From: Mobilicoccus caccae
GTDB taxonomy: Bacteria > Actinomycetota > Actinomycetes > Actinomycetales > Dermatophilaceae
DNA length: 64,000 nucleotides
Assembly (NCBI RefSeq): GCF_030161635.1
Contig: NZ_BSUO01000001.1
Span: forward strand, 2,213,199 to 2,277,198
Direction of reading: 5' to 3'
Of the stretch, positions 39,279 through 47,904 are shown piece after piece. Within the stretch, counting starts at the first letter, position 1. Each line of letters opens with the position of its first letter. The notes beneath the pieces were generated by a model that saw nothing but the letters and a program-made list of their open reading frames with translations, was not told where the DNA came from and searched no databases. The position numbers and the translations under genes were made by a program.

Positions 39279-39719
39279 TCATGCCGTACGCCATCCGGCG
39301 TCGGTGCGCCGGGCGTACCCGAGCAGCTCCAGCCGTCCGAGGGCGGCCCGGACCGACTGTTCGGACTCCCCCGCGACGACCGCGAGCTGCTCGACGCTCG
39401 ATCCCGACCGTCGGGGCAGGGCCTCGAAGACCCGCCGGTCGGTGCCCTCGAGACCGTCCCCGGCCCGCGGTGGCGCGGTCTTCTCGGGGGCCAGGTCGGC
39501 GCCCATCACCCCGATGAGTTCGACGATCTCGTCGGCGTCGGTGACCAGCTGGGCCATCCCGGAGCGGATCATCTCGTGACAGCCGACCGACGCGATGGAG
39601 GTGACCGGGCCGGGCACCGCGAGGACCACCCGGTGATGCGCGGCGGCCGTCCCCGCGGTGTTGCGGGATCCGGACCGTCGGCCCGCCTCGACGACCACCG
39701 TGCCGAGGGTCATCGTGGC
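39279..39719 (-). pseudogene. dprA: dprA, 3' fragment (146 codons)
   Basis: C-terminal part of the DNA-processing protein DprA: ATMTLGTVVVEAGRRSGSRN, TAGTAAAHHRVVLAVPGPVT and the C-terminal winged-helix-like DML1 region (LEGTDRRVFEALPRRSGSSV). It continues in frame from the 5' fragment at 47152-47904; together they make 397 aa. The 7,432-bp transposon sits between codon 251 (Ile) and codon 252 (Ala). The fragment has no start of its own apart from an internal ATG (39713), so DprA function should be lost. Confidence 0.92.
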
Positions 39720-39750
39720 GTTTCATGGGTGTCGCCCCGAGGTCGCGCAC

Positions 39751-39760
39751 TGTCGCGGAC
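39751..39760 (+). repeat. Subterminal motif, left end of transposon
   Basis: TGTCGCGGAC, 31 bp inside the left end, followed by TCA and, some bases on, CTGAC. The same decamer recurs near the right end in the same orientation; a candidate recombinase-binding site. Confidence 0.45.
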
Positions 39761-39869
39761 TCAGTGGCCTGACTGCGATAGGAGCAAGATCAGTGGGCGT
39801 GTCGCGCACGGTGGAGATGGTGTGGTCTCTCTACGTTGAGCGAAGTCATCAGCACACCCGGGAGCAGCC

Positions 39870-41063
39870 TTGACCACGTACCGAGCCTTTGCGATCCGCC
39901 TTCCATCTGGGGTTCGTTATTGGACTGTCCTAGATGAGCGGCACCGTGTGGTCACTGAGGTCGACGAGTACCTGATTCATCGGCGGTTGGGCACCGATGC
40001 CGCCGAGTCCACCACTCAGGCGTACGCGATCGGGCTGGCACTATTTCTCGACTGGTGCGACTCGATCGGCAAGGCCCCGGCCGACTCGGTCCCTTACCTT
40101 GGTCGGTTTGTCTACTGGCTCCAACACGCGAGCCCTGTCAAATCCGCCGCGACGACGACACTGGTGCGTGCCGAGCGTCGGGTCAACGCGGTGCTCTCCG
40201 CTGTCCGTGGTTACCTGCGCCATCAGGCGTCGATCGGCCGGCTACCCCACGCTGTGCTGGCGGGGCTATATGACGATTTCACGAGTCCCGTTCCGGGACT
40301 GGCCGATTTCGACCCCGGGTTTCAGCACCGCCCGCGTGCCCGCCACCGTTTGCAGGAGCCGCCGTCGTTGGTTGACAACGCCACGGATGATGAGGTGCTC
40401 AAGCTACTCACCGCCGCCACCAATCCGCGGGACCGGTTCATCATCATCGCGATGTGGCGGATGGGACTGCGCCGAGGCGAGGTGACTGGGCTGCGTCGAG
40501 AGGATGTTCACTTCGTGGCGCGCGCGACACGGCTCGGTTGCGGCGTCGAAGGGCCGCACCTGCATGTGCGCCGACGCGAGAACCCGAACAGGGCGCTTGC
40601 GAAGTCTCGGCGCCCGCGCGTGGTTCCTGCGGACTGGCTCGTGGTTCAGGCCCACGACCAGTACATGTCGGTGCTCGCCGACTTGGCTTCGGATCGACGG
40701 TCGGACTTCGTGCTGGTCAACCTGTTCCGAGAACCTGTCGGCTCGGCGATGCGACCGGACGCGATCAACGCCCTGCTCGATCGGCTGTCCCAGCGCAACG
40801 GCTGTGACCGGCGCATCCGTCCGCACATGCTGCGGCACAGCTTCGCCACGAACACGCTGGCCGCCGGAGCGACCCTCGATGTCCTCAAGGAGCTGCTCGG
40901 TCATGCCTGGGTCGCGTCGACCGAGGTGTACGCCCACCCCTCGCCCGAGCGGTTGCGAGCAGCAGTGGAGGCCGTGGCCACGCAGCGCGCGGCGGGCGGC
41001 GAGATGGTGGGGTCTGCGGCTGCCACAGGCTCCGGTTCGGCGTCGACCCTGGGGTCGGCGTGA
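39870..41063 (+). CDS. tnpA: Transposase TnpA, tyrosine recombinase
   Basis: 397 aa. N-terminal SAM-like region (STTQAYAIGLALFLDWCDSI) and a catalytic domain with Arg in MWRMGLRRGEVTGL, His-x-x-Arg in RPHMLRHSFATNTLAAGA, His in LLGHAWVASTEVYAHPS and the nucleophilic Tyr. It acts with TnpB to cut and join the element ends. The stop overlaps the tnpB ATG (41060). The Ala/Gly/Ser-rich C-tail is weakly conserved. Confidence 0.88.
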   Translation: MTTYRAFAIRLPSGVRYWTVLDERHRVVTEVDEYLIHRRLGTDAAESTTQAYAIGLALFLDWCDSIGKAPADSVPYLGRFVYWLQHASPVKSAATTTLVRAERRVNAVLSAVRGYLRHQASIGRLPHAVLAGLYDDFTSPVPGLADFDPGFQHRPRARHRLQEPPSLVDNATDDEVLKLLTAATNPRDRFIIIAMWRMGLRRGEVTGLRREDVHFVARATRLGCGVEGPHLHVRRRENPNRALAKSRRPRVVPADWLVVQAHDQYMSVLADLASDRRSDFVLVNLFREPVGSAMRPDAINALLDRLSQRNGCDRRIRPHMLRHSFATNTLAAGATLDVLKELLGHAWVASTEVYAHPSPERLRAAVEAVATQRAAGGEMVGSAAATGSGSASTLGSA

Positions 41064-43539
41064 CGATCGTCGCGCTGTCCGCTGCGGAGACCGGCCCCGC
41101 GGAACTGCCGCAGCTCGAAGGGGTCCGAGCCGCGATCCGACCCGGATTCCTCGTCGAGTGCGGCTGGGATGCCGAAAGCGGCGTCCTGTCACCTCCACGC
41201 GATCACCCTCTACTCGGGCTGCGAAAGTGTGCCCGCCAGGGGTGCCTCGCCGGGGTTCGCTCACACCACGTCGAGCTGTGCAAGACCTGTGAGGCAAGGC
41301 ACCGGTCGTCCGGCATGAGCCTGGCGGAGTTCGTGCTCGACACCAGCGTCACCAGGAGATCCAACCGGGGCGAGCGGCTGTGCATCGTTCCTCGCTGCGA
41401 ACGTCCGTCCCACACCTACGAGACCCTCTGCTCTACCCATTGCACGGCTCGCATGCTTCACCGGGAGCTCAGCGCGAGCGAGTGGATCCGCCAAGAACAG
41501 CCGACGCCTCTCCCTTCCCACGGACCCTGCCGAGTCACCGGATGCATCAGGGTGGCGGCGATGCGCGTCGGACTGTGCACCCCACACGGAACCCGGTGGG
41601 GCGTCGATCGCCGGTCGGGGCTAACCTCGCGAGACAAAGACGCACTGGCGGAGTGGATCACTCGGCAGCAGCCGATCGGGGTCGACCACCTCGTGATCCT
41701 TACGGGGCTGCCCGACCGGCTCATCGCCGAGATCCTTCTCGGGCTGCAGCACCGGTGCGACGAGGGCACCCGCACGCCGCTGACGGTGCTGCGGGCAATG
41801 GTGAGTTCCGCTCGCGCCGCAGCGGTCGACAACCTTCCCGACCTCAGTCGGGTAAGGACCACCCGGAAGAGGCACGACGCCGAGGCCCTGGCCAGGAGTC
41901 TGGCCACCAGCGTCCGCAGGGCCATGGCCACCCCCGAGAGTGAGTTCGCACTCGATGTGTGGGACCTGGCCACCTTCGGCGCGAGAGGGATGCTGGACTT
42001 CACGGCGATCAGCCAGTCGTGGCTGCGCGATGCCGCGAAGCATTGGGCGGCCGAGGATCTGCCGCTGCACCGAGGACGACAGTCCGGGGCCACAGCCAAG
42101 GGGGTGATTGGGGCACTGGTCTACCTGTCCGAGAGCTTGCGCAGCACCCGTGAGGACCACGGCGAGGACCCAGCCCGGCTGGGCCGGCGGGACATCGTGA
42201 ACTTCAGCAACCGGCTCAAGCACTTCGAGCACACCGGATCCATGACCGCCCTGACCAGGCTGCGGACGATCCGCTGGGTCCGCCGCGCGCTGGACGACGC
42301 GAGGGGCTTCCACACTGCCAGCGGGGGGTCCTGCTCGCCGACCTGCCTCACGACTTCAAGGTGACGAGGGCCGACGTGCCCGCCGAGCCGGCCCGTGACG
42401 AGCCGGGGCGGGACGTGCCTCCGTCGGTGCTGCGCACCATCGCGGACAACCTGCACGTCCTGGAGGACCGCTCCGGACGCAGCGAGCGAGTCGTGGCCGA
42501 GCTCCTGATCGAGACCGGCCGGCGCCCGGACGAGATCTGTGCGCTGCGCTACCACTGCCTGCGCCAGGACGCCCAGGGCAAGTACGTCCTGGTCTACGAC
42601 AACTCCAAGGCCAACCGGCCCGAGCGACGTCTGCCGATCGCCGACGCGACCGCCCAGCTGGTCCGAGGCCAGCAGGAGCACGTCCGAGCCACCTACCCGT
42701 CCACCTCGCTCGAGCAGGTCGCGCTGTTCCCTCGCGACTACCGCAACCGCGACGGGAAGCGACCCCTCACCGCAGTGAACTTCGGCGACGCTCATCGCAA
42801 GTTCATCGACCTGATCGCCGACCAACTGTGCGACGCCGACGGCAGCCCCTACCCGGCCCGGGAGGTCGTGCCGTACTCCTACCGGCACTCCTACGCCCAA
42901 CGGCACGCCGACGCCGGCACCGCCCCGGACGTGCTGCGGGACCTGATGGACCATCGATCGATCAACACGACCATGGGTTACTACCGGGTCAGCGAGAAGC
43001 GGACCCGGGGCGCGATCGACATGGTGGCCACCCACCAGTTCGATGGGCAGGCACGGCCGGTGCTCGGCGCGGTCGGCGGCCTGCTCAGCCACGAGCACGC
43101 GCGGCTGCGGGTGGGGCAGGTCGCCGTCCCGTTCGGCACCTGCACCGAGCCGTCCAATGTCAAGGCCGGTGGGCATGCCTGCCCGTTCAAGTACACCTGC
43201 GTCGGGTGCGGGCACTTCCGCAGCGACGCCTCCTACCTGCCCGAGCTCAAGGCCTACCTCCAGCAGCTGCTCGCCGACCGTGAGCGGCTGCTGGCGGCCG
43301 ACGAGCTGCAGGATTGGGCGCGACGGAAGGTCATCCCGGCCGACGAGGAGATCACCCAGCTGCGTGGGCTGATCCGTCGCATCGAGGCCGACCTGCAGGA
43401 CCTGACCGACGCCGACCGCGCCACCATCGAAGACGCCGTGGCCGTCGTCCGGGCCGCCAGGGCCACCGTCAGCCTGGGGATGCCACAGGTGCGGCCCGCA
43501 GCGACCAGGAAGAGAGACACCGATGCCGTCGACGACTGA
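41060..43539 (+). CDS. tnpB: Transposase TnpB, large tyrosine recombinase, frameshifted in this sequence
   Basis: Two reading frames form one protein. The N-terminal part (to about 42327) carries several Cys/His pairs (CARQGCLAGVRSHHVELCKT, CIVPRCERPSHTYETLCSTH, CRVTGCIRVAAMRVGLCTPH), a zinc-ribbon array. The C-terminal part has the integrase core: Arg in LIETGRRPDEICALRYHCLR, His-x-x-His/Arg in PYSYRHSYAQRHADAG, LMDHRSINTTMGYYRVS with the Tyr, then a Cys-rich tail (CPFKYTCVGCGHFRSDASY). Adding one base to the six-G run at 42323-42328 joins SGG to VLLADLPHDF and gives 826 aa. Typical TnpB-type architecture. Confidence 0.83.
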
Positions 43540-44113
43540 CACGACCGCCGGGCTGGCGCCAACCACAGGCGATGCGCTGCTCCAGGCCCGCCGCCGTGAC
43601 GTCGAGCGGCGCCGACGCCAGGTACACGAGGCCCTCCGCGGGCTGCTGGCCACCGGGGACGAGATCACCCTCTCCTCGGTCGCTCGCCACGCCCGGGTAC
43701 ACCGCTCCTTCCTGCATCGTCACCCCGACCTGCGGGCCGAGGTCATCGCCGCCGCCGACACCCCACCGGCACAGCTCCTCCCGTCCTCGAACGCCAGCGT
43801 GTCCAAGCGGTCCCTGCAGGCCGAGAACCTCAACCTGCGCGAGACCAACCAGCGGCTGCGCCAACACATCAGCGACCTCGAGGAACGACTCTCTGAACTG
43901 CTCGGCGAACAGGTCGCGACCCGCTGCGGACTGGGCGTCGACACCAGCCAAGCCCAGCTCCAGCGTCAGGTCGAGAACCTCGAGCAAACAGTTGCCGATC
44001 TGCGCGGCACCCTCGCCGACCGGCAGGACGAGCTCGACGCTGCGCGGCAAGCCAACCGGCAGCTTCTCACCAGCCTCAACCAGCCGGCGCCCCCTAGAAT
44101 GAGGGCCGACTGA
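43523..44113 (+). CDS. tnpC: TnpC-like accessory protein of the transposon
   Basis: 196 aa. N-terminal helical DNA-binding-like part (EALRGLLATGDEITLSSVAR, HARVHRSFLHRHPDL) and a long coiled coil (AENLNLRETNQRLRQHISDL, ERLSELLGE, LQRQVENLEQTVADLRGTLA). This is the usual third gene of Tn554-type modules, thought to influence transposition efficiency and orientation. It overlaps tnpB by 17 bp. Confidence 0.78.
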   Translation: MPSTTDTTAGLAPTTGDALLQARRRDVERRRRQVHEALRGLLATGDEITLSSVARHARVHRSFLHRHPDLRAEVIAAADTPPAQLLPSSNASVSKRSLQAENLNLRETNQRLRQHISDLEERLSELLGEQVATRCGLGVDTSQAQLQRQVENLEQTVADLRGTLADRQDELDAARQANRQLLTSLNQPAPPRMRAD

Positions 44114-44135
44114 GGCCCACCTGGAAGGACCACAC

Positions 44136-46283
44136 ATGCCACTGGATGTGGTGTACGGCGAAAGCCGTGACCGAACCGCGGCGCAAGCCTTGGCGCAGGC
44201 GCTGCGCGAGGTCGTCACGGACGGGACGGTGTATCTCGGCTACCCCGTGCTGGCCACGGCCGACGAACGGGTCGAAGTCGACGCCCTGCTCGTCTCCAGC
44301 TCCCACGGCTTGGTGGCCTTCTTGCTGCCGGACAGCACGCCCAGCGGCCCGGACGACTGGACGGACCTCATCCGGGATCAGGATCGCCTCTACAGCGTCC
44401 TGGAGAGCCACCTTGGGCGACACGAGGCTCTTCGACGTGGGCGGCGACTCGCGATCCATCCTGAGACCGCGACTGTGTTCAGCGTTCCCGTTCCTCCAAG
44501 CGAAGATGTGCACGAAGGCACGTACATCGCGCTCCACCAGGTCGCTGACTGGCTGCGCGGGCTCTCGGGGATCGACCCTGACCTTGAGCGCGCACTCCAC
44601 GCCGCGCTGCAGCGCGTGTCAACAATCAAGCCGAGCAAGAAGCGCACCAAGGTCACCAAAGCAAGCTCCCGCGGGGCGGTTCTCAAGGTCATCGAGGCCG
44701 GCATCGCCAACCTCGACCGATGGCAGAAGCAGGCCGCCATCGAGAGCCCAGAGGGCCCTCAGCGCATTCGCGGGCTGGCCGGCTCCGGCAAGACCGTGGT
44801 GTTGGCGCTCAAGGCCGCGTACTGGCACGCCCAGAATCCTGACTGGCGCATCGCCGTCACCTTCGCCTCCCGCGCCCTGTACCAACAGTTCGACGACCTC
44901 ATCACTCGGTTCAGCTTCGAGCACAGCAACGACAAACCCGACCCCGACAAGCTCAAGGTCATCCACTCCTGGGGCTCACGCGGCCGCGCTGGCGTGTATA
45001 GCACCATCGCTCATGCCCTCGGCGTCGAACCGCTCGACTTCCTCACCGCACGCAAGAAGTACGGCATGGACGCGGCCTTCCAGGGCGCCTGTGCGGAGCT
45101 CCTCGCCGTCGCCACCACGGCAACCCATGTGCCGCAGCTGTTCGACGCCGTGCTCATCGACGAAGCCCAAGACCTACCACCCGAGTTCTTCCAGCTGGTC
45201 TACCTGTGCACCACCGAGCCGAAGCGGATCGTGTGGGGCTACGACGAACTACAGCGCCTCTCCGAGGCGGCCATGCCCAGCACCGACGAACTCTTCGGTA
45301 CCGGACCGCGAGGCGAAAGTCGCGTGACCCTCCAAGCCGCCCCCGACACACCACGTCGTGACATCGTTTTGCCGGTTTGCTATCGCAACACTCCGTGGGC
45401 ACTGGCCACCGCCCACGCTCTCGGCATCGGCGTGTACCGCAAGGGCGGGCTTCTCCAACACCCGGATGACCCCACCTTGTGGACCGAGATCGGCTACAAC
45501 GTGGTGAACGGCCATCTGCAGGCCGGCGCCGCCGTCACCCTCAAGCGGTCCACCGACAGCGCCCCCAAGTACTTCGCGGAGCAACTGGTCACGGACGACG
45601 CGGTGGTGCTGCAATCGTTCCCGGACGAGGCAGCCCAGGACCTGTGGGTGGCCGACCAGATCGCGACCAACATCAGCACCGACGAGCTCGAGCCCGACGA
45701 CATCCTCATCGTCCTGCCCGACACCTACCGGGCCAAGACCCGGGGCCCCCGTCTGATGAAGATGCTCCGCGAGAGGGGGATCGCCTCGCACCAGGTCGGA
45801 GTCACTACCAGCGCGGACGAGGTGTTCCGGCCAGACTCCGTGGCGTTGGCCCACATCTACCGCGCCAAGGGCAACGAGGCGCCCATGGTGTACGTGGTCG
45901 ACGCCCAACACTGCGCCACTGAGTTCAACGCGGTGACGCGCCGCAACATCCTCTTCACAGCCATCACACGAAGCCGCGCCTGGGTGCGCATCTGCGGCCA
46001 CGGCGACCTCGTCGACGTCATCGTCGACGAGGCACAGCAGGTGGTCGACTCGCAGTTCCAGCTCAAGTTCCGGATACCCACCGACGACGAGTTGCGTCGC
46101 CTTCGCCACCTGCACCGCGACCGCCCAGCCGAACAGGAGGCCAGCGTCCGCAGGAACACGAGCCGGCTCGTCTCGTTTCTTGAGGCCGTGGATCGAGGCG
46201 AGATGGACGTGCACGATCTGCCTGACGATGTGCAGGCTCGGCTCGCCCAGCTTCAGCAAGAGCTCCCCGGTGACGACGACTAG
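44136..46283 (+). CDS. SF1 (UvrD/DUF2075-like) helicase with NERD-like N-terminus, transposon cargo
   Basis: 715 aa. N-terminal domain with VEVDALLVSSSHGLVAFLLP resembles the core of NERD nuclease domains (E-x-D-h-h-h-h), but the expected E-x-K is absent, so a degenerate nuclease. Helicase motifs: Walker A GLAGSGKTVVLALKA (about residue 211), motif II VLIDEAQDLPP (about 340), motif III-like GYDELQRLS, motif IV PVCYRNT, and motif VI TAITRSRAWVRICGHG. No four-Cys Fe-S pattern. Predicted ATP-driven nucleic-acid translocase. Forms an overlapping pair with the DUF2290-like gene. Role in phage defence is inference. Confidence 0.82.
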   Translation: MPLDVVYGESRDRTAAQALAQALREVVTDGTVYLGYPVLATADERVEVDALLVSSSHGLVAFLLPDSTPSGPDDWTDLIRDQDRLYSVLESHLGRHEALRRGRRLAIHPETATVFSVPVPPSEDVHEGTYIALHQVADWLRGLSGIDPDLERALHAALQRVSTIKPSKKRTKVTKASSRGAVLKVIEAGIANLDRWQKQAAIESPEGPQRIRGLAGSGKTVVLALKAAYWHAQNPDWRIAVTFASRALYQQFDDLITRFSFEHSNDKPDPDKLKVIHSWGSRGRAGVYSTIAHALGVEPLDFLTARKKYGMDAAFQGACAELLAVATTATHVPQLFDAVLIDEAQDLPPEFFQLVYLCTTEPKRIVWGYDELQRLSEAAMPSTDELFGTGPRGESRVTLQAAPDTPRRDIVLPVCYRNTPWALATAHALGIGVYRKGGLLQHPDDPTLWTEIGYNVVNGHLQAGAAVTLKRSTDSAPKYFAEQLVTDDAVVLQSFPDEAAQDLWVADQIATNISTDELEPDDILIVLPDTYRAKTRGPRLMKMLRERGIASHQVGVTTSADEVFRPDSVALAHIYRAKGNEAPMVYVVDAQHCATEFNAVTRRNILFTAITRSRAWVRICGHGDLVDVIVDEAQQVVDSQFQLKFRIPTDDELRRLRHLHRDRPAEQEASVRRNTSRLVSFLEAVDRGEMDVHDLPDDVQARLAQLQQELPGDDD

Positions 46284-46947
46284 GGCTCTGCACCAAGGGC
46301 TCGACACCCTTCTGACGGCGCTGCTGGACTCGGGTTTGGCCCTGGAGATCAACGGTCTTGCCGTCGACAGACGCCGCGTCACGTGGCAGCCAAGACAATC
46401 CGCCGGCCCGTTCCTGGGGTACCGGCAGCACGCCACCGTCGAGCAATACCTGTTGTGGCTTGCCAACGGCGACTATTGCGCAGTACTGCTCGATGGCAGC
46501 CTGCTTCAACTCACATACGATGTCGACGGCGGGCAGGTCTCCGGCCACCGGCTGGCGTACATCCCCTGTCCCTACGAACTCGCCCAGGATCTTCTCGACG
46601 AAGGCTTCTCCATCGAGGATCTTGTTCGCTTCTACGAGGCAAGCCCAACAGACGCGGTAGCCCTCCGCTCACCTGTTCGGTTCGACTACGACCCATCCGC
46701 AGCCAAACCCGGGCACCCTGCTTCCCACTTCACCATCAACTCCGCCGCATGCCGTATCGCATGCGTCGCCCCTATACACATGGGGCGATTCGTCGATTTC
46801 ATCTTCAGGCACTTCTATCCGGATCAGCACCGCGACCACCCGGAGCTGTTCGCTCAGGCTGAGTCTCACGTCGGCCCCGCAGTCATCGCCGACGACGACC
46901 GAGCGGCCCCTCACATCGCGTGGGCCACTGGCAAGGCAACAGGCTGA
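46270..46947 (+). CDS. DUF2290-like protein, partner of the helicase
   Basis: 225 aa from GTG 46270, overlapping the helicase stop by 14 bp. Conserved-looking block: SGHRLAYIPCPYELAQDLLD, then LRSPVRFDYDPSAAKPGHPA, SHFTINSAACRIACVAPIHM and FVDFIFRHFYPDQ. I recall this pattern as DUF2290; assignment is from memory. No catalytic motif is evident, although conserved Arg, Asp, His and Cys residues could form an active site. Strict coupling to the helicase argues for a complex or a shared pathway. Confidence 0.68.
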   Translation: MTTTRALHQGLDTLLTALLDSGLALEINGLAVDRRRVTWQPRQSAGPFLGYRQHATVEQYLLWLANGDYCAVLLDGSLLQLTYDVDGGQVSGHRLAYIPCPYELAQDLLDEGFSIEDLVRFYEASPTDAVALRSPVRFDYDPSAAKPGHPASHFTINSAACRIACVAPIHMGRFVDFIFRHFYPDQHRDHPELFAQAESHVGPAVIADDDRAAPHIAWATGKATG

Positions 46948-47151
46948 ACCTTCGACGCGCCAACCCGAGACTTGCTGGCGGTGAGCGGCAAGGCCGGGCT
47001 GCCTCAATGCCTGGGGCCAGCAGAAACGACGCCCTACGCCGGGACCGTTGCGACGCACCGCCCCAGGTGACCGACACATGTCGCGGACGCATTTAGCCGT
47101 CTGACCAGCAACGACGTGCGTATACACGCACCTCTCCCCCACAGAAAGGTC
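46948..47151. other. Non-coding right end of the transposon
   Basis: 204 bp after the cargo. Contains the second TGTCGCGGAC (47079-47088) and a hairpin GTGCGT-ATAC-ACGCAC (47116-47131) close to the right junction. It presumably holds recombinase-binding sites and the terminator for the cargo genes. Confidence 0.5.
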
Positions 47152-47904
47152 GATGAGGCGGTTGCGCAGCAGGAAGCGCGACTTGAGCGACGCCGATCCC
47201 GGCGGCATCTCACTCACGAGCGCCCCCACGTCGGCGATGTGCCCCAGCAGCCGATGGTGGGCGGCCGGGTAGGGCCGGTCGACGCCGCCCGCGAGGACGG
47301 CCACCGTCTGCCCTTCGACGGCGAGGACACCCCGGTGTGCTGCCGCGTCGATCCCGAACGCACCGCCGCTGACGACGGTGACCCGGCGGTCGGCGAGTCC
47401 GGCCCCGATGTCGGCGGCGACGTGCTCGCCGTAGGCTGTGGCCGCACGCGCGCCGACGACGGCGACGCTGCGCCGGGTCGCCGCGGCCAGGTCCAGGGGG
47501 CCGCGGACCCACAGCAGGAGCGGCGGCGCGTCCAGGACGTCGAGCCCGGCCGGCCACTCCCGGTCGTCGGGAGTGACGAGGCGAGCCCCACAGCCCGCCG
47601 CGTCGTCGAGGACCTGGTCGAGGTCGAGCTGGGCCAGACGCGGACGGAACCGGTCGAGGGAGGACTCCGCGCGGATCGTCAACGCCTCGAGGGCCTCCAC
47701 CGGCCCCAGCTCCCGCACCAATCGGGAGGCCACGGGGTCGCCCGGCTCGGCCAGGACCGACCAGGCCACCCGCGCCAGCCGGGTGGGGTCGGTGTCTGCT
47801 ACGACCCGGCGCAGGACGTGGTCACCCGGCCGCGGCTCGGCCCGGCGAGGGATCGGGGACAGGGGAAGAGTCATCGGGTGTTCTCGATCCGTCGAGGGGT
47901 TCAT
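47152..47904 (-). pseudogene. dprA: dprA, 5' fragment (251 codons)
   Basis: N-terminal and Rossmann-fold core of DprA: SAM-like N-domain, then RSVAVVGARAATAYGEHVAA and VTVVSGGAFGIDAAAHRGVL, VAVLAGGVDRPYPAAHHRLL and PPGSASLKSRFLLRNRLI, where the coding sequence meets the transposon. Read-through into the element adds about 160 unrelated residues. ATG 47904 overlaps the comM stop. DprA loads RecA on incoming single-stranded DNA; without the C-terminal part it is probably inactive, although the ssDNA-binding core is largely retained. Confidence 0.92.

What the first reader, a model, noticed from the sequence alone, without database searches (positions are those of the whole stretch)
44136..46947. 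Helicase plus DUF2290-like pair as transposon cargo: candidate anti-phage system
The only non-transposition genes of the dprA transposon are a 715-aa SF1 helicase with a degenerate NERD-like N-terminal domain and a 225-aa partner, overlapping by 14 bp. Helicase-centred gene pairs on mobile elements are a typical form of defence module. The partner's block around SPVRFDYDP, with the His, Cys and Arg residues after it, looks conserved without a known activity.
Basis: partly seen in the sequence, partly recalled or inferred. Interest (0 to 1): 0.75.

Follow-up and report, generated by a model that had tools for sequence, protein, structure and literature searches.

The report
Helicase–DUF2290 phage-defence pair on transposon
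The two cargo genes of a transposon that broke into the DNA-uptake gene dprA closely match "Helicase + DUF2290", an anti-phage system already shown to block phage T7 in the laboratory but whose mechanism is unknown; this copy is a new, apparently intact member with few novel features.

Summary
Window 44136-46283 encodes a 715-aa SF1 (UvrD-type) helicase and 46270-46947 a 225-aa DUF2290 protein. They overlap by 14 bp and are the only non-transposition genes of a 7.43-kb TnpABC (Tn554-like) element inserted in dprA. The anti-phage interpretation is well supported but not new. Both proteins match the PADLOC models of the Helicase-DUF2290 system, and a tested member inhibited phage T7 (Rousset et al. 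2022). The pair is kept together in 49 of 53 fetched loci and the two proteins co-diverge (Mantel r 0.94). It is absent from 146 close relatives. It lies on plasmids or beside type I/IV R-M, BREX, AbiE and ShosA genes, and its neighbours are strongly enriched in defence families against control regions. The helicase's N-terminal domain has a PD-(D/E)XK/NERD-like topology but lacks the catalytic E-x-K in 45 of 45 homologues. DUF2290 gives a confident model without a detectable relative among solved or viral structures, and carries an invariant D/R/D/H/H/R set, as an uncharacterised effector might. Best mechanism (inferred): the helicase senses or processes phage DNA and controls DUF2290 as effector. 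Closest whole-length structural resemblance of the helicase: human Schlafen-11 linker plus helicase.

The parts
39721..47150 (+). TnpABC (Tn554-like) transposon inserted in dprA, 7430 bp (ends +-2 bp); carries the pair as its only cargo
   Evidence: dprA of four relatives is collinear with window up to 39720 and from 47151
44136..46283 (+). SF1A UvrD-like helicase, 715 aa; residues 1-160 a PD-(D/E)XK/NERD-like domain without E-x-K, residues ~160-640 the helicase core, C-terminal helical tail
   Evidence: PADLOC PDLC03002 3.4e-215; Pfam UvrD; AF2 pLDDT 86.9; UvrD Z 19.6, SLFN11 Z 17.0
46270..46947 (+). DUF2290 protein, 225 aa, GTG start, overlaps helicase stop by 14 bp; proposed effector
   Evidence: PF10053 1.7e-31; PADLOC PDLC02998 1.4e-32; AF2 pLDDT 87.6; invariant residues
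39870..41063 (+). tnpA, tyrosine recombinase, 397 aa (vehicle, not part of the defence pair)
   Evidence: PF00589 4.1e-23
41060..43539 (+). tnpB, tyrosine recombinase; one gene in relatives, here split into two frames (41060-42364, 42361-43539) by a frameshift near the G6 run at 42323-42328
   Evidence: relatives with one frame: L109, and L132 with 844 aa
43523..44113 (+). tnpC, DUF6262, 196 aa; ends 22 bp before the helicase start
   Evidence: PF19776 1.9e-11

Best explanation
The pair is a Helicase + DUF2290 anti-phage system carried as the cargo of a TnpABC transposon. SHOWN: two-gene operon, homology to the described and tested system, strict co-occurrence and co-divergence, accessory distribution, defence and mobile neighbourhood, intact helicase motifs, degenerate N-terminal nuclease-like domain. 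INFERRED: the two proteins form a complex; the UvrD-type motor binds and travels on DNA structures made during phage replication (free ends, ssDNA, stalled forks); the dead nuclease-like N-terminal domain serves as scaffold or regulator and not as nuclease; DUF2290, with its invariant acidic, His and Arg residues, is the effector (most likely cleaving or modifying a nucleic acid) and is held inactive until the helicase engages its substrate, in the manner of HamAB or GajAB. That it is a defence system: about 0.93. That DUF2290 is the catalytic effector under helicase control: about 0.55.
For: Family: PADLOC helicase 3.4e-215 and DUF2290 1.4e-32; the same models take the enteric, cyanobacterial, Acinetobacter and Lactococcus pairs; T7 inhibition by a member (PMC9122126). 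Unit: helicase directly upstream in 49 of 53 fetched loci and in all plasmid hits read; the exceptions (L053, L057, L077, L080) have lost or truncated the pair; 14-bp overlap conserved; distance matrices r = 0.94, 0 of 5000 permutations reach it, and it holds within actinobacteria (0.84) and within the rest (0.89). Accessory. Context: pair inside a BREX operon (L030), next to type I R-M (L034, L028, L037), mREase_IV (L038), AbiEi/AbiEii (L029), ShosA (L035); 117 neighbours hit 171 PADLOC models against 3 models for 116 control ORFs. Effector idea: E-x-K missing in 45 of 45 helicases; D75, R137, D139, D141, H149, H153, R162 kept even in the distant Lactococcus protein.
Against: No phage or biochemical test of this copy. 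No physical complex shown. DUF2290 catalysis rests on conservation only; its fold matched nothing. The published test showed T7 inhibition without a mechanism.
Confidence: 0.85

Rival explanations
1. The helicase alone is the weapon: it strips or unwinds phage replication intermediates, and DUF2290 is only a targeting or loading subunit that binds DNA, RNA or a phage protein.
For: All helicase motifs are intact, and UvrD-like motors of similar fold unwind or displace (UvrD Z 19.6). The DUF2290 fold has no enzyme match.
Against: Invariant D, R, D, H, H, R residues in DUF2290 are more typical of a catalytic or ligand site than of a plain adaptor; the helicase's own nuclease-like domain is dead, so an effector is otherwise missing.
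Confidence: 0.3
2. Schlafen-like logic: the helicase half (N-terminal domain plus SF1 core) is the counterpart of the SLFN11 linker plus helicase, acting as an ATP-regulated ssDNA sensor, not as a strand-opening helicase, and DUF2290 is an RNase in trans that stops translation (abortive infection).
For: Best Foldseek matches of the helicase model are SLFN11 and SLFN14 (E 7e-14 to 5e-11); 9erd aligned over model 1-621 to SLFN11 403-899, Z 17.0, rmsd 5.2, 419 residues, i.e. linker (354-576) plus helicase (577-901) as bounded in PMC9482658.
Against: UvrD/PcrA cores score as high or higher for the helicase part (Z 19.6), there is no sequence match to the Schlafen helicase family in Pfam, the N-terminal domain was not modelled and searched alone, and nothing shows RNase activity of DUF2290.
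Confidence: 0.15
3. Not defence: a repair or plasmid/transposon-maintenance helicase pair that helps the element replicate or transpose.
For: It lies 22 bp behind tnpC in the same direction, and relatives sit on plasmids.
Against: The same pair occurs in unrelated vehicles (plasmids of several kinds, a BREX operon, P4-like satellites in PMC9122126), related TnpABC elements carry other cargo such as an EcoRI methylase with GmrSD_N/HNH (L132), and a member blocks T7.
Confidence: 0.05

Closest known systems
Helicase + DUF2290 (Rousset et al. 2022, PMC9122126; PADLOC Helicase-DUF2290; DefenseFinder Rst_Helicase+DUF2290)
   Same: Same two protein families, same order, same operon layout, mobile and defence context; full-length profile matches.
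   Different: Actinobacterial branch, about 37% (helicase) and 27% (DUF2290) identical to an enteric pair; vehicle is a TnpABC transposon in dprA, not a P4-like satellite or prophage; not tested on phages.
Hachiman (HamAB) and Gabija (GajAB)
   Same: Two-gene, helicase-plus-effector logic; GajB is also UvrD-like; weak GajB profile matches (7e-6).
   Different: HamB is SF2 and HamA a known nuclease; GajA is a TOPRIM nuclease; DUF2290 matches neither. Works-like comparison only.
Human Schlafen-11/-14 (linker plus SF1 helicase)
   Same: Whole-length fold resemblance of the helicase model.
   Different: No Slfn-core RNase domain, no sequence match; resemblance of predicted structure only.
Tn554-like TnpABC elements
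   Same: tnpA and tnpB tyrosine recombinases plus tnpC (DUF6262), cargo behind tnpC, site-specific insertion in a conserved gene.
   Different: Target is dprA, not radC; cargo is a defence pair, not antibiotic or metal resistance (comparison with Tn554 from own knowledge).

Membership tests
Helicase-DUF2290 system | Helicase of the PADLOC 'Helicase' family, full length | tested here: met
   PDLC03002 714 bits, residues 3-707, profile 2-704 of 707
Helicase-DUF2290 system | DUF2290 protein | tested here: met
   PF10053 109.7 bits over cut-off 25; PDLC02998 111 bits
Helicase-DUF2290 system | Genes adjacent and codirectional, helicase first | tested here: met
   14-bp overlap, same layout in 49 of 53 fetched loci
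Helicase-DUF2290 system | Direct sequence comparison with the tested K. pneumoniae SB5961 proteins | not tested
   That sequence was not fetched; membership rests on the profiles, which also match an E. coli plasmid pair at 988 bits
Helicase-DUF2290 system | Protects against phage (T7 for the published member) | not testable with these tools
   Published for another member only
Active NERD / PD-(D/E)XK nuclease (helicase N-terminal domain) | Catalytic D plus E-x-K | tested here: not met
   D49 invariant but [DEQ]xK in 0 of 45 homologues
SF1A UvrD-like helicase | Walker A, Walker B (DEAQD), motif VI, UvrD fold | tested here: met
Schlafen group III | Slfn-core RNase plus linker plus helicase | tested here: not met
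   No region for a Slfn core in the 715 aa: model 1-621 aligns to SLFN11 403-899 only; no Schlafen match in Pfam
Tn554-like TnpABC transposon | tnpA, tnpB, tnpC in order with clean, site-specific insertion | tested here: met
   tnpB carries a frameshift here

The most novel reading that the evidence does not exclude
The pair is a bacterial two-protein counterpart of Schlafen-11: a helicase half with a Schlafen-linker-like N-terminal domain senses replication-associated ssDNA, and DUF2290, a protein of a so far unseen enzymatic fold, acts in trans as the effector (for example an RNase) that ends infection.
Probability: 0.15. Interest if true: 0.75.

Novelty: new member of a known kind. Interest (0 to 1): 0.33.

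Why it matters
It shows that the Helicase-DUF2290 system, described from P4-like satellites and prophages, also travels in actinobacteria in a TnpABC transposon that inactivates dprA. It turns a gene pair of unknown mechanism into clear tests: the N-terminal nuclease-like domain is dead throughout the family, so attention should go to DUF2290, whose invariant D75, R137, D139, D141, H149, H153 and R162 are ready targets and whose predicted fold has no known relative.

Tried and rejected
1) Nuclease activity of the helicase N-terminal domain: rejected, E-x-K absent in all 45 homologues. 2) Fold of DUF2290: PDB by Foldseek best E 0.15, VIA-align best Z 5.3, within the chance range stated by the tool, BFVD best E 0.21, PDB sequences none relevant, no second Pfam family; so no function by fold. 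A missing match does not prove a new fold. 3) H93-R94...P101 as catalytic: doubtful, because the genome scan was seeded with HRLA..P.P, so their invariance in that set is by construction; in an unseeded set the Lactococcus protein lacks H93-R94. I therefore rest on D75, R137, D139, D141, H149, H153, R162. 4) DUF2290 in phages: no hit in 50,697 phage records with two queries; one IMG/VR contig. 5) Solo DUF2290 genes as another system: L053, L057, L077, L080 are decayed or truncated pairs. 6) The E. coli plasmid pair was not found in E. coli chromosomes by near search. 7) Most loci of the pair do not carry TnpABC, so the pair and the transposon are not bound to each other.

Full report
What is there. 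The window holds, on the + strand, a 715-aa helicase gene (44136-46283) and a 225-aa gene (46270-46947) that overlap by 14 bp. The helicase matches Pfam UvrD families and the partner matches DUF2290, PF10053, at 110 bits against a cut-off of 25. Both match the PADLOC models of the Helicase-DUF2290 defence system: the helicase at 714 bits over nearly its whole length, DUF2290 at 111 bits.

The vehicle. Alignment of the window with intact dprA of four relatives gives collinear sequence up to 39720 and again from 47151, so the inserted element is 39721-47150, 7430 bp within 2 bp. It holds tnpA, tnpB, tnpC (DUF6262) and the pair, nothing else. In the relatives the insertion point reads TCATCG-TCG-CGATGA, an inverted repeat in the codons for the conserved RNRLIATM stretch of DprA; such a site suits a tyrosine recombinase. 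tnpB is one gene in relatives (844 aa in L132; one frame in L109) and is split here by a frameshift near a run of six G, so the element may be immobile now, unless this is a sequencing error.

A known system. Rousset et al. 2022 (PMC9122126, read) describe an ATP-dependent helicase with a DUF2290 protein from a P4-like satellite hotspot that specifically inhibits phage T7, and found it again in Vibrio and Bacillus prophage hotspots. A review (PMC10952713) lists its domains and says that the role was not explored, and I found no later mechanism paper in the library held. The PADLOC models that match the window also match the pairs on an E. coli plasmid, in Acinetobacter, Nostoc and Lactococcus.

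One unit under selection. One scan of GTDB genome contigs gave 52 DUF2290 loci and one scan of viral contigs gave one. The helicase lies directly upstream in 49 of these 53; in L062, L068 and L085 it is split into two open frames. In L053, L057, L077 and L080 the pair is decayed or truncated. The 14-bp overlap is the commonest spacing and typical of actinobacteria. Distance matrices of the two proteins correlate at 0.94, with 0 of 5000 permutations as high, and at 0.84 and 0.89 within the two main groups. Common descent of linked genes gives much of this; it shows that the two travel together, not that they touch.

Accessory and among defence genes. The own genome has one copy and 0 of 146 relatives have any; 3 of 396 genomes of the phylum have a strong helicase match. 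One of these, G403, appears to be the same contig as the Acidimicrobiaceae record L035 (contig length 35,850 in both), which places the window in Actinomycetota. Neighbours read from annotated plasmids include a BREX operon that encloses the pair (L030), type I R-M (L034, L028), AbiEi/AbiEii and a tyrosine recombinase (L029), and an abortive infection protein (L032). Among 117 neighbour ORFs within 7 kb in 15 actinobacterial loci, 171 PADLOC models are hit, led by type I methylase and specificity subunits; 116 ORFs from 16 arbitrary actinobacterial regions hit 3 models. Model counts are inflated by redundant models, but the contrast is large. Named cases include ShosA (L035), type I R-M (L037) and a type IV restriction enzyme (L038).

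Anatomy of the helicase. AlphaFold2 with 45 sequences gave pLDDT 86.9. Residues 1-160 have the order a-b-b-b-a-b of PD-(D/E)XK/NERD domains; D49 and A50 are invariant, but no sequence of 45 has [DEQ]xK where the catalytic pair should be. The core fits UvrD (4c2t, Z 19.6, rmsd 3.3 over 368 residues, model 160-638), while the first Foldseek hits are human SLFN11 and SLFN14. With the SLFN11 monomer 9erd the alignment runs from model 1 to 621 against SLFN11 403-899 (Z 17.0, rmsd 5.2, 419 residues), that is, linker plus helicase as bounded in PMC9482658. The N-terminal domain was not searched alone, so this is a lead and not a finding.

Anatomy of DUF2290. AlphaFold2 with 46 sequences gave pLDDT 87.6 and pTM 0.86. 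Nothing in the PDB or among viral models matched, nor did any solved sequence. D75, R137, D139, D141, H149, H153 and R162 persist in a set that was not chosen by a motif, down to the Lactococcus protein; the HRLA..P.P block is invariant in the large set partly because the scan was seeded with it.

How it most likely works. Shown: operon, family, context, intact motor, dead nuclease-like domain. Inferred: the motor recognises DNA made during phage replication, the N-terminal domain and motor hold DUF2290, and DUF2290 acts as effector on release or activation. The alternatives are that the motor itself disrupts phage replication with DUF2290 as adaptor, or a Schlafen-like scheme with RNA as target.

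Verdict. A real, apparently intact defence pair and a new member of a known kind. The new points are modest: the actinobacterial TnpABC vehicle in dprA, the family-wide loss of the N-terminal catalytic residues, the unmatched DUF2290 fold with its invariant residues, and the Schlafen-like whole-length resemblance of the helicase.

Noticed in passing
window 42323-42328 (within 41060-43539): tnpB is split into two frames near a run of six G; relatives have one gene (L132, 844 aa; L109). Frameshift mutation or homopolymer error.
   Followed up: partly
window 39279-39720 and 47151-47904 (minus strand): dprA is cut in two by the element, and the own genome shows no second match to the dprA C-terminal part, so DprA function is probably lost.
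   Followed up: partly
window 39720/47151: In intact dprA of relatives the insertion point is an inverted repeat, TCATCG-TCG-CGATGA, in the conserved RNRLIATM codons; other dprA insertions were not surveyed.
   Followed up: partly
L132:3166-10096: A related TnpABC element carries an EcoRI-type adenine methylase and a GmrSD_N-HNH protein behind tnpC, another restriction-like cargo. TnpABC elements may be a general defence vehicle in actinobacteria.
   Followed up: no
L035:12959-14598: ShosA homologue 2-3 kb downstream of a Helicase-DUF2290 pair in an Acidimicrobiaceae MAG, followed by a 237-aa gene without a PADLOC match.
   Followed up: partly
L030:5792-8645: In Thioflavicoccus mobilis plasmid pTHIMO01 the pair is nested inside a BREX operon, between the methyltransferase and the PglZ/BrxL genes.
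   Followed up: no
L053:9866-12293: In a Crocosphaera MAG a DUF2290 gene without helicase lies next to a comM-like gene; comM also flanks dprA in the window.
   Followed up: no
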